DNA from: Spisula solida | Lineage: Eukaryota; Mollusca; Bivalvia; Venerida; Mactridae | Assembly (NCBI GenBank): GCA_947247005.1 | Contig: OX365945.1 | Coordinates: 15,816,501 to 15,880,500, forward strand | DNA: 64,000 bases | Reading direction: 5' to 3' | Shown: positions 34,781 through 58,761 of the stretch, piece by piece | Layout of the letters: each line of letters begins with the position of its first letter | How positions within the stretch are numbered: the stretch's first letter is position 1 | The notes under the pieces: generated by a model | What the model saw: only the letters and a program-made list of their open reading frames with translations | The model's database searches: none | Told to the model about the DNA's origin: nothing | Position numbers and translations under genes: made by a program

Positions 34781-34792
34781 TAGTTAATAAAG

Positions 34793-36146
34793 AAATTCTA
34801 TGCTCAAACCCACCAGACACACAGAGGCAAAAGTGATGTAATTCTATGCTCAAACCCACCAGACACATAGAGGCAAAAGTGAAGTAGTTCTATACTCAAA
34901 CCCACCAGACACACAGAGGCAAAAGTGATGTAATTCTATGCTCAAACCCACCAGACACACAGAGGCAAAAGTGAAGTAATTCTATGCTCAAACCCACCAG
35001 ACACACAGCGGCGAAAGGGAAGTAATTCTATGATCAAACCCACCAGACATACAGAGGCAAAAGGGAAGTAGTTCTATACTCAAACCCACCAGACACACAG
35101 AGGCGAAAGGGAAGTAATTCTATGCTCAAACCCACCAGACACATAGAGGCGAAAGTGAAGTAATTCTATACTCAAACCCACCAGACACATAGAGGCAAAA
35201 GGGAAGTAGTTCTATGCTCAAACCCACCAGACACATAGAGGCGAAAGTGAAGTAGTTCTATGCTCAAACCCACCAGACATACAGAGGCGAAAGGGAAGTA
35301 ATTCTATGCTCAAACCCACCAGACACATAGAGGCAAAAGGGAAGTAGTTCTATACTCAAACCCACCAGACACACAGAGGCGAAAGGGAAGTAATTCTATG
35401 CTCAAACCCACCAGACACATAGAGGCAAAAGGGAAGTAGTTCTATGCTCAAACCCACCAGACACATAGAGGCAAAAGGGAAGTAGTTCTATACTCAAACC
35501 CACCAGACACACAGAGGCGAAAGGGAAGTAATTCTATGCTCAAACCCACCAGACACATAGAGGCAAAAGGGAAGTAGTTCTATGCTCAAACCCACCAGAC
35601 ATACAGAGACAAAAGTGAAGTAATTCTATGCTCAAACCCACCAGACACATAAGAGGCGAAAGTGAAGTAGTTCTATGCTCAAACCCACCAGACACATAGA
35701 GGCGAAAGTGAAGTAATTCTATACTCAAACCCACCAGACACACAGAGGCGAAAGTGAAGTTATTCTATACTCAAACCCACCAGACATACAGAGGCGAAAG
35801 TGAAGTAATTCTATGCTCAAACCCACCAGACATACAGAGACAAAAGTGAAGTAATTCTATGCTCAAACCCACCAGACACATAGAGGCGAAAGTGAAGTAA
35901 TTCTATGCTCAAACCCACCAGACATACAGAGGCGAAAGTGAAGTAATTCTATGCTCAAACCCACCAGACATACAGAGGCGAAAGTGAAGTAATTCTATGC
36001 TCAAACCCACCAGACACACAGAGGCGAAAGTGAAGTAATTCTTTGCTCAAACCCACCAGACATACAGAGGCAAAAGTGAAGTAATTCTATGCTCAAACCC
36101 ACCAGACACACAGAGGCAAAGTGAAGTAATTCTATGCTCAAACCCC
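34793..36146. repeat. 46-bp minisatellite, about 29.5 copies
   Basis: The unit is TGCTCAAACCCACCAGACAC followed by ACAGAGGCAAAAGTGAAGTA and ATTCTA, from 34801 to 36135 in 29 units. Variants (GGCAAAAG/GGCGAAAG, GTGAAG/GGGAAG, ACACAC/ACATAC/ACATAG) are arranged in mosaic blocks. The array ends 50 bp from the LTR retrotransposon. Confidence 0.97.
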
Positions 36147-36195
36147 ACTCAACATGTTTATGTTCAGATATCTATAAGTGTCACTTTTATCTATC

Positions 36196-37133
36196 TGTGA
36201 CCGGAGGTTGGGCGGAGGCGTCGACTGTCGCGCTATTTGTGGGGAAACTCGCTTAGTGTGTCTTAGTCGATCACCACCCGTAACCTTGTTGTTGTTGTAT
36301 TCCAAACCTCCAGTCGTGCAGTGTTCTCAAATGTTTAGCTTAAGCTAAAGTTGTGATGTTTGTTATAGTACATCAGTAATGGTTGATGTACTATGTTGTA
36401 TTCGCATCTCCAATGTGTATCGAGTAGTTCTCCAATGTTGCAATCTATATTGCATATGATAATATCAGTATCTCCAATGTTGATTCTTTCAACAATATTG
36501 TAACCATGTTATAATGTTATAACGACAAGTCCCATTTAAGTTTTCTTCATTTATTTCTTTACATGTATTCAACAGTTCCAATGATAACAACTTCTATTAC
36601 TTTAAAAACCAGATAAATTAAGTATTAGTAACCAGATGACTATAAGCTAACACCAATTAAGTAGATGTTAACTGTTCAATTCATAATTTAAGACTAAATT
36701 CAATAATCATTATTTTAAAATTACATTAAATTATTTCAACATACCTGATTGGTCAAGTGTTCTTAACCAATCAAAAGTCTCTATTTATTATATAAAATAT
36801 TAACATATTAAGTTTTGATAAAGATCATTAAGTGACAATTCTAAAGACTATAAACAATATATTTGACCATGGGCAGTTTCTAGGAACAATACTTGGTCTG
36901 CTCTTAGATGCTTATCAGTAGCCATTATGTTGCCATGTGTAATTATGGATCATAATTATTTAAAACCACAGATCTTATCTAATAAGAGTCTGACTTTCAG
37001 CTTTAGGCTATAAAGTGCATTTGGTGAAGTTAGTAATTAAAGTCTTATTAATATAGAAATTAATCTATATGATTTTTATAAAATATAGCATTGAAGTTTG
37101 AAAGCTAAATGCCGGTTCTTAAACCTTGTTACA
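36196..37133 (-). repeat. 3' LTR of the retrotransposon (left copy)
   Basis: It spans 938 bp, the same length as the right copy, and no difference was found by reading through both. In element orientation it starts TGTAACAAGG and ends GGTCACA. It carries CCAAT-type motifs in an inverted pair (GATTGG...CCAATC) and a TATATAATAAATA box nearby, as expected for a U3 promoter. Confidence 0.95.
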
Positions 37134-39695: not shown

Positions 39696-40400
39696 CTATA
39701 TTGATGTCTTTGTGCCAAGGTATGTTCTGTGATTCTGATGTTCAAATAGCAACTTATGTTCTGTGCTGTGGAGGTAACCGTTTATTTTGTGAGTCTGGTG
39801 GTTCTGTTTGATGTTTTGGTGTTGCTTCAGTGTGTAATGTGGCTGGATCAACTGATGGTGGTAATGGGTTCTGATCATGACCATTAATGAGGGTTACACA
39901 ACCAAGCGCTCTGGCTTATCATGTTGGTAACAATTATCATCAATGTCAACAGAATTAATTCCCATAGTTTACCATTCTCAGGGTATGTATACCCTGAAAG
40001 ACCATCAGTATTTCCATTAAGCAGATAAAGAATTGTGGACAGTCTGGAATTTGTGGGATGCAGATGCAGTGCCCATCTACCATGGCGTCCACCAAATTTC
40101 TTAATCTGCTTTATCCACTTGACTGATAGGTGATCAGTATACACTGTGAATGGAGAGTTAGCAAGGTATGGCCGATACCATTGACAGCTTCAACCGGTGC
40201 CAACCCTACCATATTTAGTCATCTGGTTACTTGGCCATTTTACTCTCTGCCACCATAAGCTACCATATATTCCTTATACCACTATAATCAAATTGGGATG
40301 GCTTAAAGCCTACAGTCACCAATATGGGAAGATGGTAAAATTTTGGAAGGACAGGATAGGGGCAGACGTAAGGACCTTTTCGAGTCTTAAATGAGTCTAA
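39696..40400 (-). pseudogene. Decayed Gypsy pol fragment (RNase H region)
   Basis: On the minus strand a stretch reads RPYLANSPFTVYTDH, then LSVKW and GRWALHL, the pattern at the end of RNase H in Gypsy polyproteins (VYTDH..L..L, then GRW). Upstream sequence has stops in the same frame and downstream is a proline-rich remnant (39700-39890). There is no intact reverse transcriptase or integrase. It is a relic and is described only, not reconstructed. Confidence 0.75.
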
Positions 40401-41419
40401 AAATTTCAATCGTTCTTAAAACAGTTTCAGTGTATTACACTGCTTCTAAAGTTTCATTGATTTCCGGAGGACTTGAATACCTTGTAAACTATAATGTTTT
40501 CACTAACATAAGAGTTGTAGCTCCTGAATCAAATAGTCTAGGAGCACTAACTTGCTATCATATAGGTCTAAGGGAGACATTCAGGGAAACTGAGGGTTGT
40601 TCATATCTATAGTACGTACAGTAGAACAATTACTTGTTAAGAACACTGCCAATTCGTCTTACGTGGAGCCATTTTAAGCTGTTTTTCTCTAAAACACTTA
40701 ATAATTTAATTTGTTGAAAACTGTTATTTCTACGTATAAAACTAATTACTTGCAAAGAAGTATGTATAACTTCTCGAAAACTTACTGTTATCAATAATCT
40801 AATAATAATTACTTTGTACTATTGTAAGCAAAAACTTCAATTTTCCATGAAATTTATCAGAACCTGACAAAATTTTACTCTTGCCTTCAAGATATATACT
40901 TAATATCTGATATTCAATCAAAATTTTAACACAATGAAAATTTATGCGCAAAAATTTAATGAAAAAATTTGGTTTCTGTAAATAATATATAATTGGATGA
41001 AACAAAATTCACCTATATTGGACTATATTAAAATCTATAGTGATAACAAGTAAATAACAAGTGTATAACAGAAATTATACTGTATAACAGAAAACAACTT
41101 TTGTAAATAGCAACTGCTGAACCTTGCAACAATAAAGATATTAGCACAAAATAATGATTTCCACTTACCAACTGTGTGTGGATAACTTCAATAGCAACAG
41201 TTTATTCTATAGCACTTTTAATATTGGCAGTTCTTGGCTTCCTCTGTTCCACCGGATTTGGTTGTAATATGTACTTCTCACGAAAGGTTGTCCCTCATTC
41301 CACTGGTACATGTTATCGTATGCACCTCTCATCTAAATCGTCCCAAACGTTTCAATGTTGATATTCTTTAATTTTGGTTATTTGGCATCCCTCGATTTTG
41401 TTGGATCTTGTATACCGTT

Positions 41420-41432
41420 GGATTCTCCGCCA
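41420..41432 (-). promoter_or_regulatory. Candidate tRNA primer-binding site of the LTR element
   Basis: In element orientation TGGCGGAGAATCC starts 8 bases after the 5' LTR. The leading TGG would pair with a tRNA CCA end. The matching tRNA is not identified. Confidence 0.4.
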
Positions 41433-41440
41433 TAAACAGC

Positions 41441-42378
41441 TGTGACCGGAGGTTGGGCGGAGGCGTCGACTGTCGCGCTATTTGTGGGGAAACTCGCTTA
41501 GTGTGTCTTAGTCGATCACCACCCGTAACCTTGTTGTTGTTGTATTCCAAACCTCCAGTCGTGCAGTGTTCTCAAATGTTTAGCTTAAGCTAAAGTTGTG
41601 ATGTTTGTTATAGTACATCAGTAATGGTTGATGTACTATGTTGTATTCGCATCTCCAATGTGTATCGAGTAGTTCTCCAATGTTGCAATCTATATTGCAT
41701 ATGATAATATCAGTATCTCCAATGTTGATTCTTTCAACAATATTGTAACCATGTTATAATGTTATAACGACAAGTCCCATTTAAGTTTTCTTCATTTATT
41801 TCTTTACATGTATTCAACAGTTCCAATGATAACAACTTCTATTACTTTAAAAACCAGATAAATTAAGTATTAGTAACCAGATGACTATAAGCTAACACCA
41901 ATTAAGTAGATGTTAACTGTTCAATTCATAATTTAAGACTAAATTCAATAATCATTATTTTAAAATTACATTAAATTATTTCAACATACCTGATTGGTCA
42001 AGTGTTCTTAACCAATCAAAAGTCTCTATTTATTATATAAAATATTAACATATTAAGTTTTGATAAAGATCATTAAGTGACAATTCTAAAGACTATAAAC
42101 AATATATTTGACCATGGGCAGTTTCTAGGAACAATACTTGGTCTGCTCTTAGATGCTTATCAGTAGCCATTATGTTGCCATGTGTAATTATGGATCATAA
42201 TTATTTAAAACCACAGATCTTATCTAATAAGAGTCTGACTTTCAGCTTTAGGCTATAAAGTGCATTTGGTGAAGTTAGTAATTAAAGTCTTATTAATATA
42301 GAAATTAATCTATATGATTTTTATAAAATATAGCATTGAAGTTTGAAAGCTAAATGCCGGTTCTTAAACCTTGTTACA
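41441..42378 (-). repeat. 5' LTR of the retrotransposon (right copy)
   Basis: This is a 938-bp direct repeat of 36196-37133, followed on the plus strand by the TATC duplication and unrelated DNA. Its U3 has the same inverted CCAAT pair and TATA-like box as the left copy and would drive minus-strand transcription into the internal region. Confidence 0.95.
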
Positions 42379-47885: not shown

Positions 47886-48533
47886 AGCTGTGAATACAAT
47901 AAATATTATTTGTACCTCTTGCAAATTTGAGGAAAAACCCTAACATTGCAATTTCCAGATTACATCTATTAATTGTACACAATATGTTAACAGCAAACAA
48001 CAATTCCACACCCTTATCAGATCACAGACTCATCAGATTCCTGGTCGCTAAGACTTTTGTGATGGTGATGTAAGAAAACAACTACACATGGAGAAGTCAG
48101 TAGCATCTTATTTTCTGTTCTCTGCACAAATTTCTGTATGTATGTCTGTCATGCAAATGCTGAATATTTATCTTTCTGAAATGAAATTACGCATGGTCAT
48201 CCTGAACATAGCCTTATATCAATGCAATTTTGTGTAACAAGATAATTTTTTTGTATTAAAATTTTGATATGTTGTCCTTTCGGGCCATTGCTTTGGCCAT
48301 TGAACAACAAATTGGCAAAACTACGATGGTGAGAAGTCGAATATCATTGTCTTTTCACCGTCATAATCCTTTTTACTTTAATACCTCTGTAGTTTCGCAA
48401 TTTCGACATTGCACCAACGTTGTTTCACATCTTATTTATTTTTATGCAGTGATGGCTAGAATCATCATGTGAAGTTTAAGTCAATGGGACTAATGGTTCT
48501 CAAAATACCAAGCGTAAACGGATATAAACTATA

Positions 48534-48862
48534 GAACCCTTGTGACCTTGACCTTTGATACAAATATCAACAATACAACTCTTGTAACCTTAACCTTTGA
48601 TACAGATATCAACTACCGTATACAACCCTTGTGACCTTGACTTTTGATACAAATATCAACAATACAACTCTTGTGACCTTGACCTTTGATACACATATCA
48701 ACAATACGACCCTTGTGACCTTAACCTTTGATATGGATATCAACACTACAACCCTTGTGACCTTGACCTTTGATATGGATATCAACAATACGACCCTTGT
48801 GACCTTAACCTTTGATACAGATTTCAACTTTACAACCCTTGTGACCTTGACCTTCAATGCAG
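48534..48862. repeat. 42-bp minisatellite carrying nuclear-receptor half-sites, 8 copies
   Basis: The unit is ACAACCCTTGTGACCTTGAC followed by CTTTGATACAAATATCAACA and AT. The core TGACCTTGACCT is two TGACCT half-sites in direct repeat with no spacer; on the other strand TCAAGGTCA is the extended half-site bound by ERR and NR5A receptors. About half the copies have the full core; others have AACCTTAACC or a TTGACTTTT change. 42 is a multiple of three, so both strands show repeat-only open frames. Confidence 0.95.
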
Positions 48863-48869
48863 GGACCCA

Positions 48870-51800
48870 AAAAAAATCAGCCTAGGGAGCATCTTTTGAA
48901 AGCGGCAAATCAAATGAAGTTTGTAGTTATTATCAAGATTAGATATCTAGCAGAAATAAATTTCTTTGAGGCTCCTGAGACCTTTGCAGGAATTTTGGTC
49001 ATTTATCATGTCGCCATTGCATGATGTCACTTTGCTTTGTTGCACATCATATTGTCTTGTCATTTTATATTATCGCGATGTCACTTCGTGTTGACGCGTG
49101 TCGACCATTAAAACGCAACATTATCAAAAGATAATTTCATTTGATGCAAAGCAACATTTTCCTAACATTGTAGGTATATTGTGTCGCAGGTTAGCGTTTT
49201 GGTGGTCGTTATGCAAAGTGACGACCAAAAATGCGAAGCAGCATTTCCGTAATACCATATTGCATATCGCCTGTCTGGTGGTTTAAAAAGACATGATCTA
49301 ACTGCGCAATAAAAAGGAATTGACAATGATTCTATTAAAATAAAACATTGCGTCGTCTGCAGGTAAGTTTGAATGTGGCGGTGTCTCTTAGTCATTTGTT
49401 GACCTCGCAAACGCAATGCAATATTGACCCCAACAGGATTCTTCTTGACAGTTAAAATAAAACACATTTTGCCAAACTTTTAGGGGTCTGGTTGCCTCCT
49501 CTTGAAATCTAATACAGACAAACAGACTAAAAAAGACAGGCCTAAATATCAATCAAATACTAGGAAATTAATCAGACATTTCCAGATATAACTCCAATAT
49601 TGCAGACATCTTTTTCACCAGTCAAAGAAAAACTCCAGCCTCCTCCCCCATCTGTCTTGATCACACTACGCCCCAGCTTTAGTAAATATCACAGTAAGTT
49701 GTTCTTACGACGCCGCGCTGTAAGGTCAAGGACGATAAAAATACGTGCTGTTGTCTCCAAAATATCGTAAACAAACAGTTTTTTCGGCGTGTCAACCACG
49801 TTAGCAATCGTCTTTTGTACAGAAAAGGTATTGCATGCACTGGAACTATCCTCTGCAAGCTAAATATGTTTTGTTTTTGTCGGATTATTGGGAATAAATC
49901 CTAATTCAGTTTTGGCATTGCACCACGGGAACTAGGCACCACCTTTCCGCCCCTTCACACCTTATAATTGTTACTGAATTTTCTGCACTATAAGTTATTA
50001 GTTGCATTGAGATCAGATGTGCAAATATCACGAATATGTCACGTTGCCCTTGGCCAGACTGCTTGAAAACTGCCTGTCCTTTGCCATGGCTTTGGTCCAG
50101 GCATGAAGATGAACCTGAAAAATGGCAAACGTGAATCAGGTGCTTGATGCCTAACTAAAGCGCTACCAAGCGATTTTTTGGTAGCGCTTTACTAGATCTA
50201 TATAACAAATCACTTATCAGCGAGCAATGCTTGTGGATAGCATACCGTTTCTCAGTAGTTGCTAGGCAAGCGCTTTCTTATGCTATGGACCGCTTCGATT
50301 AATTAAGTAGCGCTTTGCTGTGCAAAGGTCTGCTATTTTTTGAAGCAAGCTGTTTTCCTAGCTTGGTGCTATTGAGTGTCGGTAGCGGTTTGGTTGGGCT
50401 ACAGGTGTGCAACAATGACAATATTAATAAATTGTAGTCGTAAATATCTACAGGTATACTAGCTGGCGACCACCTAGTTCTGGATACCATAACTAAATGG
50501 TCTTTTATTTACACTGACGTGTCGGCCTTTTAGTTATGGAATTACCCTCTTCAATAATCAACTGTTTAAGCTTAACGCCTAAAATGCATGTTCATTGTTC
50601 AAAAATCGCCCAAAAACTATAATTTACGTATAAATGTAATATTTTTCAAGTGTTTTGTCTTAAAACAGTCAATGTAACACCTACTGATAATCATATATTG
50701 CTTAAAGTTTGATCAGCTCCCGCGGCCATTTTGAATAATTAATTTATCGCAGGTGTGTGCGAGAGCCGTTTTCGAAAAATCCGTTATTTCTTGAAACATG
50801 GTCGAAAACGCCTTAAAATTAAACAAAACCTTTAGATATACCTTTACATAAGAAACAAACACGTTATTTTTGCTATAAATTTGAAACAATCGTCGGAATT
50901 AATGGTATTTCTTGCAAAACATTTTGTTTTTGGGGGTATACTGATAGAATATGCTCCAATTGATAGGGTGTCAATGATTATTTAGTTCCAAACGTGCGTT
51001 TTGTCATAAAACAAACGCGACTCAAACTGAGACATAGAGCTGTTAGGTTTCAAAGAACAAACGGCTTTGACGATGAAATGGAATGATCATCGTCAAAGAC
51101 CTTGGACTAGCGACCACCCATTCCGGATGACCACCAATCCGGACAGACTCAAAAACGCTTTATAGCGGCCATTAATTTTGATCATCTGTTGTCAATCAAT
51201 TTAACGCTCACTTTTTGTCAACACTACGAAGTAGCAACGATTAAAGTTAAATATTTTACCAGAAATGTCGCATTTATTTTCGAATGCACTCGCGAAGCTT
51301 GTTTACATCACTGGGGAAGTCGAAAATCGCATAACTGCACATGTGCAATTCGTCTAAGCAGCCCCGGCATGTAAACGACGGTCCTTAATGCTAAATATGT
51401 GGTTAGCCAATGCGATATTTTGTTCACAGTTAAACCAGGAAAATTTAGCTGTAGTGAATACGTGCAGAGTTTTAAAACATCGTAAAAAATTATTTTGTAT
51501 CAAAATGCCCGCTATGAAAAGTGAACGTTTAAAATTTTACCGCTTATCAGTTTCGATCGATTTTCCAATATTCACGGGAGATAAATCCTACAAAATTTTG
51601 TACAAACCGTTCATTGGTGCTCTCCTTTGATTCATTACACAGTTTATTACGATATTTAACGCCTTTTTCGTAATAAAAGCGCGACAACACGGTGTCAGGA
51701 TTGATGGTCCTGTCGGACTTAAAAATGAGGTGATCTGATGACCCCTACAACGACCCTCAGAAATACACTTGAGCTATTTTTTGAAGTAAAAAAATTAGCT

Positions 51801-52843: not shown

Positions 52844-53000
52844 ATGCTTCCTGGGACATCAAGTATTGGTAGATTGTTTAAACCATCCACAGTCAGTGTA
52901 TTAGCCTTGTGCTCATACTATACTGGCTTCAGTCTTCAAGGTGTCATGGCTTGGAGGTCCAGTGGTAACAGCAATACAAATCTGATCGACAACTTACAAG
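52844..53000 (+). CDS. PCMT1: PCMT1 exon 1, with optional N-terminal extension
   Basis: The conserved start (MAWRSSG, human MAWKSGG) is the ATG at 52946; the exon ends at 53000 before GTATGA, after 18 codons plus one base. An in-frame upstream ATG at 52844, 12 bases after an in-frame TAA, would add 34 residues containing basic residues and a short hydrophobic core (VSVLALC). The exon may begin at a 3' splice site (CTGTTTCAG, ending 52810), which would make the preceding part 5' UTR. Mammalian PCMT1 also has a longer form with a hydrophobic extension directly before MAWK. Whether this extension is translated, and whether it targets the protein to the ER or mitochondria, cannot be decided here. 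Confidence 0.85.
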
Positions 53001-56000
53001 GTATGATTTTCTACTGTTTCTGTACATTGGACACCATTTCAAGCCTGTCAATTGCGCAAGTAGGTCAAAAGAGCTAAAAGTAGATTATAAAAGTGAAGAC
53101 ATTTGGTTTGTAGCATTATCAAATGGTGCTCACAAGATTGTTTAACTTGTCTTGTCGTTATGTAAAAACATTGCTGTCATATTGTGCCTTTGTTTCTCAT
53201 ATTTATATATATATGTATATAACTTAGAAACTAAAGCTTTTCAAAAACATTTTTTGAGCTTGATCCTGGTTCTGGATACTAATGATTATAGAAAAATGTT
53301 GGAGAAATAACTTCTATCCAAGCTTGTTAAAATATAATTATGTAAAAAAGTTCTTGCCCCATCGGATTGACACACATTATTTACAGTTATACTGTTTGTA
53401 CTCAATTTATGTCCTTCTATTGTATGCATTTAATATTTATTGATTATAGGCAATGGGATTATTAAGGCTGAGAGAGTTGCTGCTGCTATGAAGGCTGTGG
53501 ACAGAAAACACTTCTGTAAACATAATCCGTACGCTGATTCTCCTCAAAGTATCGGATATCAAGTTACAATAAGTGCACCTCATATGGTAAATATATGTTT
53601 CTTGCTACATATATCAATGAAACGACTTTATAAGTTTTTAATATACAGGGCTCTCATTTTACCAGTTTTGAGGCTGAAATTCGGCCCCATTCCCCTCCTA
53701 AATGAATGTAAATTTTTCCCTATTTTCTTAAAAAAAATCCCCCTTTTCTTTAAAATGATGCGAAATTCCCCTATCTGAGGACCCCTGGCCCCAGTCCTCA
53801 AAAGTGTCGTAAGGGCCCTGTTATATTTTTAAAGGAAATCTGTTCAGGAATGCTGTGAATGAGATCTATTAAATTGTCATTATTACTTAATTCCAAGTTA
53901 CCTATTCATGCTGGGGTTGCTAAATTTTATCATACAGGTGTAGCGGAATTATATCGGCATCTCTTTAAGTCAACCTTTGAGTTTGAGTTTTGGACTTAAG
54001 TCCAATTGTGATCCTGGGGACTGGACTTCATTTCTGACGTATGCTTTTATATTTTCAGCATGCACATGCTTTAGAGTTATTATCAGATCATCTAGAGGAA
54101 GGATGTAAGGCACTAGATGTAGGATCAGGTAGTGGGTACCTCACTGCTTGTATGGCATTAATGGTAGGTATAAGCTCAACATTCATCTTTGCTTCTGCTT
54201 TCCTCATTACAATGTCAAGTATTGAAATTTCAGCCACTGCCATTGTCCAGAAGTTGGCTGTAAACCAGTCATCCGGATTTGATTCCTAGCTGTGGTAGGT
54301 CTAGGGCTCTCGCTTCACTTTTGGGACTGGGGCCAGGGGCCCTTAGGTAGGGGAATTACGCGACGTTTTGAAGAAAAAGGGGAATTTTGTCTTTTATAAA
54401 TATCAATACTATTATAATAGTAATACATATCATCTGAACAAAAAGCCAATTTCAAGCTATAACAACAGATACAGCAATGGCTGACCAGCATTTACAAAGG
54501 CTCTTCATTGATTTAAAAAAAAAAAAAGGTTTTTTTTTGGAGGGGAATATTTTCAGAAAATAGGGGGAAAATGTATATTCATTTAGGAGGGGAATGTTAT
54601 GTCTTTCCTCAGTAGAAATCCAGCCATTGTCCAGAGAATAATGTGCTGGATTCGTAACCCAAGGACTTGATTCCCAATCGCAGCGGTTTATACCCATCCA
54701 TGAAAAATTTACAATTTTGTCGATGGAGAGGTGATTGGCTTGTTATTTTTTGTCAAAGGTTGTTTGTCAGGGTCCTCAAGTGAATTCATTGGACCATGTG
54801 CAGCTGTAATTAACTAGTATAATGTGTATTTATTGGTACTCTGTCAATGTCAATTCCAGGTCGGTTCTTCGGGTAAAGCGGTTGGTATTGATCATATCAA
54901 AGAATTAGTAGATGGTTCAAAAGACAACATAAATAAAGATCCTAAGTTAGGAGCATTGATGGAGACTGGACAGATAACGTTGGTTACTGGTGATGGTAGG
55001 AAGGGCTATGAACCTGAAGCACCCTATGATGCTATACATGTAGGTGCTGCGGCCCCCATATTACCTGAAGATGTAAGTACAGTATCTTACCATTTTTATG
55101 TCCCCGCACCAGTAATGCAGGAGGCATATAGTGATTGTCCTGTCCGTCTGTTTGTTTGTTCCATTGAAAACTCAAATATTTTCAAAGCCCAACAAGGCAT
55201 TGCTTTCCAACTTGGCATACTTGTTTACCATCATCAATATCTTACATTGTAAACGCCATGTATCACTAATGACTATCCAACATTTCTACAGAATTATAGC
55301 CCTTGATTGACTTAGCTAGCTATAATGGACAAGGCTTCCAGCAAGTTGTAGCCGGTTACTGCAGTTTTATTTTCAATTAAATTCAAAATAATCTATGATT
55401 TACATGTAAGTGTGTCATCAAGTTTAGTTATTCCCCTTTGTAATTTTTCAAACTTAATTCTTGTCTGGGCCATAACTTGAAGAATATTGGAGATATCATT
55501 TTGAAACTTCATAGGTGAATAGTCCTCATTGAGAGGATGTGCAGTGCCCAAGAACCATAACTTTTTATTCCTATTTTAGAGTTGCTCCCCTTTGTACTTT
55601 TTCATACTTAATTCTTGTCCAGGCCAGAACTCAAACAGTTTTGGATATATAAATTTGAAAATTCATAGATAAATAAATCTTATTATTACAGTGCAGTGGC
55701 AAAGAATAATAACATATTTTTTTAGCATTTTTTCTGTGACAAACGCCCCACGGGGAGCATAACCTGTCTGTGATGGCTCTTATCTAGAATTATTTGTCTA
55801 TGTTCTATGTCTGTCTCTTGCGTTGGCGGCAAGGCTTTGCCGCCGTTTCTGTGTGACTTTGGATTGTCTGTGCACTTAAACAGTATTTATGTAATTAAAT
55901 ACTAGTATGTTTAGCATGGATGTTTTGTTTTCAGTTAGACCTTTTGTCAGAATACAATGAAATAATACTTTACAAACGTTGAAAATATTTGTAAATGTAC

Positions 56001-58761
56001 TGAGTATAGTGTATCTAGTATGGATGTTGTGTTTTCAGTTAGTAGAACAGTTAAAGCCTGGAGGACGTCTTGTAATACCTGTATTTCTATGTATGGATGT
56101 TGTGTTTTCAGTTAGTAGAACAGTTAAAGCCTGGTGTGCGTCTTGTAATACCTGTATTTCTGTGTATGGATGTTATGTTTTCAGTTAGTAGAACAGTTAA
56201 AGCCTGGAGGACGTCTTGTAATACCTGTATTTCTATGTATGGATGTTGTGTTTTCAGTTAGTAGAACAGTTAAAGCCCTGAGGACATCTTGTAATACCTG
56301 TATTTCTATGTATGGATGTTATGTTTTCAGTTAGTAGAACAGTTAAAGCCTGGAGGACGTCTTGTAATACCTGTATTTCTATGTATGGATGTTATGTTTT
56401 CAGTTAGTAGAACAGTTAAAGCCAGGAGGACGTCTTGTTATACCTGTATTTCTATGTATGGATGTTGTGTTTTCAGTTATTAGAACAGTTAAAGCCTGGA
56501 GGACGTCTTGTAATACCTGTATTTCTATGTATGGATGTTGTGTTTTCAGTAAGTAGAACAGTTAAAGCCTGGTGTGCGTCTTGTAATACCTGTATTTCTA
56601 TGTATGGATGTTATGTTTTCAGTTAGTAGAACAGTTAAAGCCAGGAGGACGTCTTGTAATACCTGTATTTCTATGTATGGATGTTGTGTTTTCAGTTAGT
56701 AGAACAGTTAAAGCCAGGAGGACGTCTTGTAATACCTGTATTTCTATGTATGGATGTTATGTTTTCAGTTAGTAGAACAGTTAAAGCCAGGAGGACGTCT
56801 TGTAATACCTGTATTTCTATGTATGGATGTTGTGTTTTCAGTTAGTAGAACAGTTAAAGCCTGGAGGACGTCTTGTAATACCTGTATTTCTATGTATGGA
56901 TGTTGTGTTTTCAGTTAGTAGAACAGTTAAAGCCTGGTGTGCGTCTTGTAATACCTGTATTTCTATGTATGGATGTTGTGTTTTCAGTTAGTAGAACAGT
57001 TAAAGCCAGGAGGACGTCTTGTAATACCTGTATTTCTATGTATGGATGTTATGTTTTCAGTTAGTAGAACAGTTAAAGCCTGGAGGACGTCTTGTGATAC
57101 CTGTTGGTGGTGTTGGGGAGACTCAGATGTTACAACAGATAGACAAACATCCTGATGGTTCTGTACATAAGAAGAATTTGATGGGAGTTATTTACGTACC
57201 TTTAACAAGCAAGGAGAAACAATGGCCAAGGTTTCGATAAAACATTCTATTACTTCTCCACTGCATGACTCTAACCCAGGTGTTTATTTTCTGTCTGAGT
57301 GCAAACATTATTTAGCATGGGTAAAAGTTAGAAAGTTTGAAAATTCTGAAACTACTGTGGGGATGTCAATATTCCTACTTTATCTGGACGTCCGGATTAG
57401 TCTATATCCTAAAAGAGTTATGATTCCAGACAAAAGTAAAAGTTATTTTATGAAAATATCTAAAGAAATGGCAAGGTTATGGTCAATTTTATCTGCTCTG
57501 AAAGATTTTCTTTAATAATGGATATGATTATTAGAATTTACAATTTGGCTCTGTTAACACAGTCATCTAATACTGAGGAAATGTCTTTTAGCATAGGAAA
57601 AATTAAGAAAACAGACTATTATACACTAAAAATCCTGAAGTTCAGGAAAAATGAGGATAACTTTTACCCGTGATATAGTAAAGCTAGCTTGCTGTGTGCT
57701 TTATTGAGACCATGCATGTAGGCAATGTTAAAGCTTTGCAGTGACAATCATAGTGACCTTGACTTTAAAAAGGTTAGGTACTGTAGAACTTAAGTCCTGG
57801 TGACTTTGACCTCCTGACTTCAAAAAGGATAGGTGTTGTAGAACTTGTCATTGGCAAGTCACACACAAGGTTTGAAGTTGTAAGGTGGAAGCAACTTCAT
57901 TTTATAGGCAAGTTTAGTTTTGTGACAGGCATACTAGTAAACAGACAAAAAACAATACGCCCGATCAAAAATACTGAGAACTTTCTAAATGTTGTACATT
58001 AGAGGCGACATGGTATGATTGTTATCTGATTTTGATGAAGCTTTGTCACAATGTTTGCATGCCTCGAAAATGCGTCACCCAGAAAGTAAGTAATCTGTTC
58101 AAATCTCATTTTCAGCCATAATGGCTGTGTACTCGGGTGAGCAAGATGCCAATGTATAGCCTAATTGTTTTAGCACCTTCGTGACCAGGTGAGCTGCTTG
58201 GGTCATAAGTTGTCCATCCATCAAAAATAATTGAATCTTTTTTAGAGACCCTACCCAACCATGGACACAATGCATATTGCGACATAAAATAAATTATTAA
58301 CTAAACCTGTTTGTTAACTTAAAGACTTAATTTAGAGTTGTGGCCCTTGATTTGGTAACCATTTATTATGCCCCCCATCTTTGATGAGGGGGTATGTTGC
58401 TTTGCACATGTCTGTCGATCTGTCTGTCTGTATGTTTGTCGGTCGACAGGCCAAATGGTTTCAGTTCAATAACTGAAGAACACATTGCCCTTAGATCTTC
58501 AAACTTTACATGGAGGTTGGTCATAAGCACAAGATGACCCCTATTGATTTTGAGTTGAAGGTCACTGTGACCTTTACTATTTAATGATGATTTCTGCTAT
58601 TGGGCTGCCATGGGGCATACGTGTTTTACAAACATCTCTTGTTGAGAACATTATTCTATGCATTAAAAGTCATACATCATAATATAAATTATATTTATGG
58701 TTGAAAACTTTATAAAAGGATGGGCATTTTGGTTCATTTCAGATCGAAGGATGAGCTTTGA
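52946..58761 (+). CDS. PCMT1: Protein-L-isoaspartate(D-aspartate) O-methyltransferase, spliced gene
   Basis: The enzyme uses S-adenosylmethionine to methylate isoaspartyl and D-aspartyl residues in aged proteins, starting their repair; it is mainly cytosolic. Exons at 52946-53000, 53450-53586, 54059-54163, 54860-55072 and 57061-57240 join with GT/AG sites and compatible phases into 229 residues, against 227 in human. Visible motifs: N-terminal MAWRSSG; the substrate-binding stretch [16 protein letters not shown] at residues 49-64; SAM motif [10 protein letters not shown] at 84-92; GIDHIKELV at 108-116; GDGR at 143-146; [13 protein letters not shown] at 153-165; [11 protein letters not shown] at 175-185; and GVIYVPLT near the C terminus. 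No active-site residue appears lost and there is no frameshift. An alternative last exon at 58743-58761 gives a 232-residue form. Identification rests on recognising the family along its whole length. Confidence 0.97.
53450..53586 (+). CDS. PCMT1: PCMT1 exon 2
   Basis: The acceptor is TTGATTATAG ending at 53449 and the donor is GTAAAT at 53587. The exon has 137 bases: two complete the glycine codon split with exon 1, followed by 45 codons. It encodes the helix before the active site and the conserved [15 protein letters not shown] segment that closes over the peptide substrate. The phase joins cleanly to exons 1 and 3. Confidence 0.96.
53646..53825. repeat. Dispersed repeat in PCMT1 intron 2
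   Basis: It runs from CAGGGCTCTCATTTTACC to GTAAGGGCCCTG and contains CCATTCCCCTCCTAAATGAA and GACCCCTGGCCCCAGTCC. It is the inverse of the repeat at 54300-54605. Confidence 0.8.
54059..54163 (+). CDS. PCMT1: PCMT1 exon 3
   Basis: The acceptor is TTTATATTTTCAG ending at 54058 and the donor is GTAGGT at 54164. The 105 bases form 35 codons in phase 0. The exon carries SAM-binding motif I (DVGSGSGYL), the glycine-rich loop of class I methyltransferases. It is flanked in introns 2 and 3 by two oppositely oriented copies of the same repeat (see findings). Confidence 0.96.
54300..54605. repeat. Dispersed repeat in PCMT1 intron 3, opposite orientation
   Basis: It contains GGACTGGGGCCAGGGGCCC, AAAAGGGGAATTTTG, GGGGAAAATGTATATTCATT and TAGGAGGGGAATG, the reverse complement of the intron 2 copy with an extra insert. 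The pair flanks exon 3. Confidence 0.8.
54860..55072 (+). CDS. PCMT1: PCMT1 exon 4
   Basis: The acceptor is CAATTCCAG ending at 54859 and the donor is a strong GTAAGT at 55073. The 213 bases give 71 codons in phase 0. It encodes the strand with GIDHIKEL (the acidic residue that contacts the SAM ribose lies in this region in the family), GDGR, and [13 protein letters not shown]. The reading frame closes exactly onto exon 5 ([12 protein letters not shown]). Confidence 0.97.
55090..55800 (+). repeat. Bivalve-type repeat sequence in PCMT1 intron 4
   Basis: It starts near ATGTCCCCGCACCAGTAATG, GAGGCATATAGTGATTGTCC (with CTGTCCGTCTGTTTGTTTGT) and ends near ACGCCCCACGGGGAGCATAA. Between them lie two related blocks with TTCATACTTAATTCTTGTC.GGCCA.AACT and TTTGAAA.TTCATAG (about 55440-55680). 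Confidence 0.6.
55908..55950 (+). repeat. Diverged relic of the 73-bp unit's intronic part
   Basis: TAGCATGGATGTTTTGTTTTCAGTTAGA resembles the unit's TATGGATGTTGTGTTTTCAGTTAGT, about 100 bp upstream of the first regular copy, but continues into unrelated sequence after TTAGA. It may be an older duplication of the splice region. Confidence 0.4.
56010..57104 (+). repeat. 73-bp tandem array of the PCMT1 3' splice site plus exon 5 start, 15 copies
   Basis: Splice-site AGs are followed by TTAGTAGAACAG at 56039, 56112, 56185, 56258, 56331 and so on at exactly 73-bp steps to 57061, with no net indel over 1,022 bp. Copy 7 reads TTATTAG and copy 8 TAAGTAG at the start. Each unit is 44 bp matching the start of exon 5 (coding [14 protein letters not shown]), then 29 bp of intron end (ATTTCTATGTATGG...TTTTCAG). 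Copies 1-14 differ from each other by a few substitutions (GGAGGA/GGTGTG, CCTGG/CCAGG, TTGTG/TTATG). Because 73 is not a multiple of three, reading from any earlier copy reaches a TAG at the start of the third unit. Confidence 0.97.
57061..57240 (+). CDS. PCMT1: PCMT1 exon 5, last exon of the main form
   Basis: The acceptor TATGTTTTCAG ends at 57060; the exon encodes 59 residues from [15 protein letters not shown] to EKQWPRFR and a TAA at 57238-57240. The first 44 bases are the last copy of a 73-bp tandem array; only this copy continues into the GGVGETQM... coding sequence. A GT at 57231 (AAG|GTTTCG, a weak donor) offers alternative splicing two bases into the final Arg codon, to the KDEL exon at 58743. 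Confidence 0.96.
57746..57862 (+). repeat. Imperfect tandem duplication, about 58 bp, 2 copies
   Basis: TGACCTTGACTTTAAAAAGG, TTAGGTACTGTAGAACTT is followed by GACCTCCTGACTTCAAAAAG, GATAGGTGTTGTAGAACTT. It lies in the 3' UTR of the short PCMT1 form or the intron of the KDEL form. Confidence 0.75.
58369..58643 (+). mobile_element. ATGCCCCCC...GGGGCAT repeat element in the last PCMT1 intron
   Basis: The ends TTATGCCCCCCATCTTTGAT and CCATGGGGCATACGTGTTTT are partly inverted; the inner text (CACATGTCTGTCGATCTGTC, TGTCTGTATGTTTGTCGGTC, GTTTCAGTTCAATAACTGAA) is a common bivalve repeat as I know it. It carries a consensus ERE palindrome. Confidence 0.75.
58559..58573. promoter_or_regulatory. Consensus estrogen-response-element palindrome inside a repeat
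   Basis: AGGTCACTGTGACCT matches AGGTCAnnnTGACCT with no mismatch. It is part of the mobile repeat at 58369-58643; use by any receptor is unknown. Confidence 0.6.
58743..58761 (+). CDS. PCMT1: PCMT1 alternative last exon encoding a KDEL C-terminus
   Basis: The acceptor TTGGTTCATTTCAG ends at 58742. Joined to the donor at 57231 it completes an Arg codon and then reads Ser-Lys-Asp-Glu-Leu-stop (TGA 58759-58761). KDEL at the extreme C-terminus is the canonical ER-retrieval signal. Vertebrate PCMT1 makes a parallel isoform II ending in RDEL by the same use of a donor just before the isoform I stop. The equal position, phase and peptide argue strongly against chance; expression is not shown by sequence alone. 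Confidence 0.85.

What the first reader, a model, noticed from the sequence alone, without database searches (positions are those of the whole stretch)
56010..57104. The 3' splice site and exon start of PCMT1 are tandemly amplified 15 times
Seen directly: fifteen copies of TTTTCAG|TTAGTAGAACAG at exactly 73-bp intervals, each made of 29 bp of intron end and 44 bp of exon 5. Only copy 15 continues into the real exon. A unit of 73 is 1 modulo 3, and reading from any earlier copy meets TAG at the start of the third unit; copy 14 also shifts the frame of the true exon. So 14 apparently complete acceptors precede the one that gives enzyme. Either the spliceosome reliably chooses the last copy, or the gene makes many nonsense transcripts. 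A VNTR built on an exon-intron boundary of a conserved housekeeping enzyme is unusual. The zero-indel register suggests recent expansion or homogenisation.
Basis: partly seen in the sequence, partly recalled or inferred. Interest (0 to 1): 0.95.

Follow-up and report, generated by a model that had tools for sequence, protein, structure and literature searches.

The report
Clam gene with fifteen splice acceptors
In a surf clam, the point where the last main exon of a protein-repair gene begins has been copied head to tail fifteen times, so the splicing machinery must pick one acceptor among many near-identical ones; such arrays are known from lancelets, and this one is a natural test of how splice sites are chosen.

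Summary
A 73-bp unit (29 bp of intron end, 44 bp of exon start) is repeated 15 times without an indel at 56010-57104, at intron 4/exon 5 of PCMT1. The gene is otherwise intact: five GT-AG exons code for 229 aa, and a sixth exon would give a KDEL-ending isoform. A Pfam search of the genome found no second PCMT1. The animal is almost certainly Spisula solida, whose HiFi assembly makes an assembly error unlikely. Only copy 15 leads into enzyme. A decayed acceptor lies 104 bp before copy 1. By a crude matrix all 15 acceptors resemble the gene's real ones. The kind is known: 'mirages', exon-boundary minisatellites of amphioxus genes, reported not to disturb splicing (PMC3087553, PMC3902484). About 10% of a small genome sample is minisatellite, so an array landing on a boundary needs no special cause. 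Most likely copies 1-14 are intronic passengers and copy 15 is mainly used because it alone yields a normal-sized exon 5. No RNA was available. Verdict: true, a new member of a known kind, and a good test case for acceptor choice.

The parts
56010..57104 (+). array of 15 units of 73 bp, each 29 bp of intron 4 end plus 44 bp of exon 5 start
57061..57240 (+). copy 15 continuing into the real exon 5 ([23 protein letters not shown]...QWPRFR stop)
52844..53000 (+). PCMT1 exon 1; ATG at 52844 gives a 34-aa extension weakly alignable to that of molluscan homologues (13 of 34 with Mactra); inner ATG at 52946
53450..53586 (+). PCMT1 exon 2
54059..54163 (+). PCMT1 exon 3
54860..55072 (+). PCMT1 exon 4, donor GAT|GTAAGT, phase 0
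55898..55938 (+). ghost acceptor: decayed older copy of the intron end, AG just before 55935
56000..56004 (+). CTGAG, branch-point-like, A at -36 of copy 1; lies outside the repeat unit; another AG stands 20 nt before the copy 1 acceptor
57021..57025 (+). GTAAT, the only NTNAN motif between -15 and -50 of the copy 15 acceptor, A at -37, in the exon-derived part of unit 14
56131..56139 (+). donor-like CTG|GTGTGC gained in copy 2 (same in copy 8, G at 56572, and copy 13, G at 56937)
56546..56554 (+). copy 8: TCA|GTAAGT, donor-like sequence overlapping the acceptor; the same change makes the first codon TAA
57228..57236 (+). alternative exon 5 donor AAG|GTTTCG, weak, for the KDEL isoform (inferred)
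58743..58761 (+). exon 6: CAG|ATCGAAGGATGAGCTTTGA, gives PRSKDEL as in Mactra antiquata
58288..58293 (+). AATAAA, possible polyadenylation signal of the RFR isoform

Best explanation
A mirage-type minisatellite: a 73-bp segment spanning the intron 4/exon 5 boundary of the PCMT1 gene of Spisula solida was tandemly amplified to 15 copies by slippage or unequal exchange, in a genome full of minisatellites (array shown; mutational route inferred). Copies 1-14 are now intron. The spliceosome mainly uses copy 15 (inferred), because only that acceptor makes exon 5 a normal 170-nt exon closed by its own donor, or a last exon that starts next to the unique exon body; the earlier copies would make it 243 to 1192 nt. 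Leakage, mostly to copies 14 and 13, would give frameshifted or truncated products.
For: Intact five-exon gene of 229 aa with all GT-AG sites, and a KDEL exon. Exon 5 is about as conserved as its neighbours: 53 of 59 identical residues with Mactra and 55 of 59 with Mya (41 to 55 of 59 over the nine homologues compared out of 120 fetched), so copy 15 must be used at least in part. No second PCMT1 found. Dead copies carry nonsense changes (copies 4 and 8). Amphioxus precedents with the same anatomy, reported not to disturb splicing. For identical tandem acceptors in a human reporter library, order gave no preference, and an optimal branch point did not in general change the choice, so wider context should decide. 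Exon sizes by acceptor. Minisatellites fill 20,065 of 200,000 bases sampled, with 8 arrays of at least 8 copies and 300 bp in 20 regions.
Against: No transcript was seen. The exon 5 donor is weak by the rough matrix (0.59 against 5.6-8.0 for the four other donors), and in the RFR isoform exon 5 is terminal, so exon definition may be feeble. Copy 15 has no better acceptor than the others (5.3, as in 6 of 15 copies; the other 9 have 6.27). The matrix itself discriminates poorly: outside the array, five more AGs in intron 4 and the ghost reach 5.3 or more. The branch-point-like CTGAG, and a strict TTTAC at -67, stand before copy 1, and scanning models favour the first AG after the branch point, which would predict early copies.
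Confidence: 0.65

Rival explanations
1. Decoy or poison acceptors: a large share of PCMT1 transcripts joins exon 4 to copies 1-14, giving nonsense mRNAs or, because exon 5 is terminal in the RFR isoform, stable mRNAs for a C-terminally truncated protein. The copy number of the array then tunes PCMT1 output.
For: All 15 acceptors score alike (5.3-6.3, within the 3.8-6.8 of the gene's four other acceptors). Identical tandem acceptors show no order preference in a human reporter library, so the naive share of copy 15 is near 1 in 15. Scanning from the branch point favours the first AG.
Against: Reported amphioxus mirages splice normally. Copies 2-15 lack a strict branch-point motif in the zone examined. 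A search for one read-through peptide (that of copy 11, residues 180-219 of the query) found nothing, but no transcript or protein of this species may be in that database.
Confidence: 0.2
2. Exon or intron birth: some units are used as microexons. Copies 2, 8 and 13 gained a donor-like CTG|GTGTGC 22 nt after their acceptor; with later acceptors this would create new introns from mirage units, as proposed for amphioxus globins.
For: Donor-like score 7.37 in 3 of 15 units against 5.6-8.0 for the donors of introns 1-4; published model.
Against: 22 nt is not a multiple of 3, so one microexon shifts the frame. The three copies share one variant, which is probably one event spread by duplication.
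Confidence: 0.08
3. Assembly error or a private non-functional haplotype.
For: One haplotype only was available here.
Against: Units differ from each other and both edges are unique. The published assembly is from 31-fold HiFi, QV 62.8, contig N50 15 Mb; such reads usually span 1.1 kb easily (recalled). The gene is intact and conserved.
Confidence: 0.04

Closest known systems
'Mirages' of amphioxus (Adh3; globins BflGb6 and BflGb9; troponin C; PGBD5)
   Same: [quoted passage not shown] BflGb6 is an acceptor-side array of intron end plus exon start (passages of PMC3087553 and PMC3902484).
   Different: Bivalve, not cephalochordate; 15 units against 6 and 3 in the two BflGb6 haplotypes; zero indels; splicing and instability not tested here. 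The copy number in Adh3 was not seen (original paper not held).
Internal tandem repeats at exon-intron boundaries of human genes in segmental duplications
   Same: Minisatellites at boundaries that can alter splicing; 27 intron modifications kept after inspection (passages of PMC2812944).
   Different: Variable repeats there average 30-bp units repeated 4 times, in duplicated paralogues; here a conserved enzyme gene with no second copy found.
Closely spaced tandem acceptors (NAGNAG and the like)
   Same: More than one AG competes for one donor (abstract opening of PMC3250501).
   Different: NAGNAG acceptors are 3 nt apart; here 73 nt apart with the whole exon start copied.

Membership tests
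[quoted passage not shown]
mirage minisatellite | unit length within the reported span (10 to about 160 bp) | tested here: met
   73 bp; reported lengths
mirage minisatellite | many units keep splice AG/GT signals | tested here: met
   AG in 15 of 15 units and in the ghost
mirage minisatellite | concerted evolution with array edges left out | tested here: inconclusive
   copy 1 has 7 differences from the consensus and copy 15 a private G; recombinant types present, but the repeated-block test gave p = 0.12
mirage minisatellite | regular mRNA splicing is not disturbed | not testable with these tools
   no RNA data; protein search with one read-through peptide empty
mirage minisatellite | length instability between haplotypes or tissues | not testable with these tools
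   an alternate haplotype, GCA_947247015.1, is published but I had no way to reach it
PCMT1, protein-L-isoaspartate O-methyltransferase | PCMT domain and full-length match to a solved PCMT1 | tested here: met
   PF01135 E 1.3e-80; 1i1n E 6.4e-96 over residues 2-228
whole-exon tandem duplication | complete exon copied | tested here: not met
   only 44 of the 180 coding bp of exon 5 are in the unit
NAGNAG-type tandem acceptor | acceptor AGs a few nt apart | tested here: not met
   spacing 73 nt

The most novel reading that the evidence does not exclude
The array is a length-variable splicing rheostat: its copy number differs between alleles or tissues and sets how much PCMT1 message is productive, or how much of the RFR and KDEL isoforms is made, by the number of decoy acceptors between exon 4 and exon 5.
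Probability: 0.08. Interest if true: 0.85.

Novelty: new member of a known kind. Interest (0 to 1): 0.5.

Why it matters
Fifteen acceptors, nearly alike from about -21 to +44, and one older ghost stand in a single natural intron of a conserved gene. Which one is used tests branch-point scanning, first-come choice and exon definition against each other, without engineered libraries. It also suggests that exon-boundary minisatellites reach beyond cephalochordates: among the titles and abstract openings listed by my searches I saw no molluscan case.

Tried and rejected
RNA structure as the selector: three 146-nt stretches of the array and its edges fold no better than shuffles (z 1.32 to 1.67). 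Rejected.

Selection on the acceptor part of the units: 2 variable states in 29 intron positions against 11 in 44 exon positions among copies 2-15, Fisher p = 0.063. Not claimed.

Higher-order block duplication: longest repeated run of unit types 3, permutation p = 0.12. Not claimed.

In-frame 33-nt microexons ending at CTT|GTAATA: donor score only 0.56. Rejected.

Survey of other exons in the same genome: 20 of the 50 DEAD-helicase places listed were fetched with 600 bp on each side. I picked them by hand among the first 34 rows, leaving out all rows with a stop inside and the long single-frame ones. Direct repeats of 25 bp or more touching the Pfam match or 60 bp around it were found in 1 of 20 (L038), a 34-bp array that by my reading starts inside the intron and holds no exon sequence. 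So 0 of 20 boundary-spanning arrays, against 1 of 6 PCMT1 exons in the same test. A Pfam match need not reach the exon's ends, so true boundaries can lie outside the 60 bp; the sample gives no rate.

Whole-genome DNA search for the 73-bp unit and whole-genome protein search with PCMT1: not completed, so I cannot say whether the unit occurs elsewhere or came from a mobile element. DNA of other bivalves was not searched; by their descriptions the collections hold prokaryotes, viruses, phages, plasmids and metagenomes.
Full report
What is there. Fifteen 73-bp units lie head to tail at 56010-57104 without an indel. Each is 29 bp of intron end and 44 bp of exon start. They lie at the last coding junction of a complete PCMT1 model: exons 52946-53000, 53450-53586, 54059-54163, 54860-55072 and 57061-57240, all GT-AG, 690 nt, 229 aa, with intron 4 in phase 0. 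The protein matches PF01135 (E 1.3e-80) and the solved structure 1i1n along its length (E 6.4e-96). Molluscan homologues printed have an N-terminal extension, which here would start at ATG 52844 (13 of 34 identities with Mactra), and Mactra antiquata ends in PRSKDEL; the matching exon here is 58743-58761. So the gene has an RFR form ending in exon 5 and, by inference, a KDEL form that uses a weak donor at 57231.

Which animal. The genome G000 has 931,988,947 bases in 36 contigs. The Spisula solida genome note gives 932.1 Mb in 38 scaffolds (passages of PMC11101916). Contigs C1-C5 measure 69.027, 65.063, 64.987, 58.713 and 58.363 Mb against 69.04, 65.07, 65, 58.72 and 58.36 in its table; the eight further contigs whose lengths I saw also have counterparts within about 20 kb. 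The sizes are close but not identical, so it may be another version. S. subtruncata differs (longest scaffold 75.87 Mb). The PCMT1 protein is 88% identical to those of Mactra antiquata and Mya arenaria (the best 120 of 7148 hits were listed).

Is it real and functional. The published assembly used 31-fold HiFi reads, QV 62.8. The units carry private differences, and both edges are unique. Exon 5 is about as conserved as its neighbours (53 of 59 with Mactra, 55 of 59 with Mya, 41 to 55 over nine homologues). A Pfam search of the whole genome found four exons of this locus and one more place, which is PCMTD-like at 32% identity. The enzyme therefore very probably comes from this locus, and copy 15 must be used at least in part.

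Anatomy of the units. Copies 2-15 differ by 3.2 of 73 on average; 3 of 91 pairs are identical. All four combinations of the sites at -10 and +20 occur, which speaks for exchange between units or repeated mutation. TTTTCAG is kept in 15 of 15. Copies 4 and 8 carry nonsense codons, so the exon part of the dead copies is not held to coding. An older ghost acceptor before 55935 shares 32 of 41 bases with the left flank of copy 1, counted by eye; against the unit it scores 47, with a maximum of 32 in 500 Markov-resampled flanks. The boundary was thus probably duplicated once before.

What the spliceosome sees. The matrix is weak evidence: five other AGs in intron 4 also reach 5.3 or more, one of them 8.35. 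In the AG-free zone plus 15 nt before each of copies 1-15 there is no strict YTNAY motif. Copies 2-15 have GTAAT (GTTAT before copy 7) at -37, inside the exon-derived part of the preceding unit, and GTTAA/TTAAA at -59/-58; copy 5 also has CTGAG at -50. Copy 1 has CTGAG at -36, with another AG 20 nt before the acceptor, and a strict TTTAC farther up at -67. In a human reporter library, identical tandem acceptors showed no order preference, unlike donors, and an optimal branch point did not in general affect the choice (section 7 of PMC6783452). Scanning models predict the first AG after the branch point (passages of PMC1431707). What sets copy 15 apart is exon geometry: 170 nt to the alternative donor, against 243 for copy 14, 316 for copy 13 and up to 1192 for copy 1. 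I therefore think exon definition selects copy 15, with some leakage to copies 14 and 13. This is inference; no RNA was available. The weak donor argues against a strong effect.

Fate of wrong transcripts. Copies 1-13 give 49 or 50 residues and then stop, except copy 4 (7 residues) and copy 8 (none); copy 14 is frameshifted and stops at 57153. In the RFR form the stop lies in the last exon, so junction-dependent decay would not act (general knowledge) and a truncated protein could be made. A protein search with the read-through peptide of copy 11 found nothing.

How ordinary is it. In 20 regions of 10 kb at round coordinates on five chromosomes, 20,065 of 200,000 bases lie in arrays (period at least 10, at least 3 copies), and there are 8 arrays of at least 8 copies and 300 bp; the window has 11.86%. 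Scaled up, that is some 37,000 large arrays. With 13,833 genes and an assumed 8 exons each, several hundred would overlap a boundary by chance if neutral. This is a rough inference, not a count. In a small hand-picked sample, 0 of 20 DEAD-helicase exons had a boundary-spanning array, and one had an intronic array close by; the test could miss boundaries beyond the Pfam match.

What is known. Tandem duplications of exon-intron boundaries were named mirages in amphioxus Adh3. They were then reported in globin genes (BflGb6: 150-160 bp units at an acceptor, 6 and 3 units in two haplotypes), and a later paper adds PGBD5 and cites troponin C. Adh3 data and globin RT-PCR suggested undisturbed splicing, and length and somatic instability were reported (passages of PMC3087553 and PMC3902484; the 2002 paper itself is not held). 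Human boundary repeats are in PMC2812944 (passages). Among the titles and abstract openings listed by my searches I saw no molluscan case; subscription papers are mostly not covered.

Verdict. Real, very probably in a functional gene, and a member of a known kind by the features that could be tested. It is new by phylum as far as I saw, has more units than the BflGb6 arrays, and is an unusually clean natural experiment on acceptor choice.

Noticed in passing
window 58743-58761 and 52844-52945: PCMT1 appears able to make an ER-type form: an N-terminal extension weakly alignable to that of other molluscs, and an alternative last exon ending in KDEL.
   Followed up: partly
window 36138-37013 and 41368-42258: A dispersed repeat of about 0.9 kb in two copies, seen as matching open frames; not aligned.
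   Followed up: no
window 39884-40189 (-): Open frame resembling a retrotransposon RNase H region (recalled resemblance, not searched), seen.
   Followed up: no
window 34790-36145 and L012:3055-10000: Two large arrays with 46-bp units, 29.5 and 151 copies; whether they are one family was not checked.
   Followed up: no
L038:840-1134: A 34-bp array of 8.6 copies that starts about 37 nt inside the intron after a DEAD-helicase exon (donor placed by eye), with a decayed start closer to the donor; near-boundary but not boundary-spanning.
   Followed up: partly
window 48521-48899: A 42-bp array with the motif GTGACCTTGACC, with open frames on both strands.
   Followed up: no
window 56549: Copy 8 carries GTAAGT overlapping its acceptor (TTTTCAGTAAGT), an acceptor-donor overlap inside the array.
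   Followed up: no
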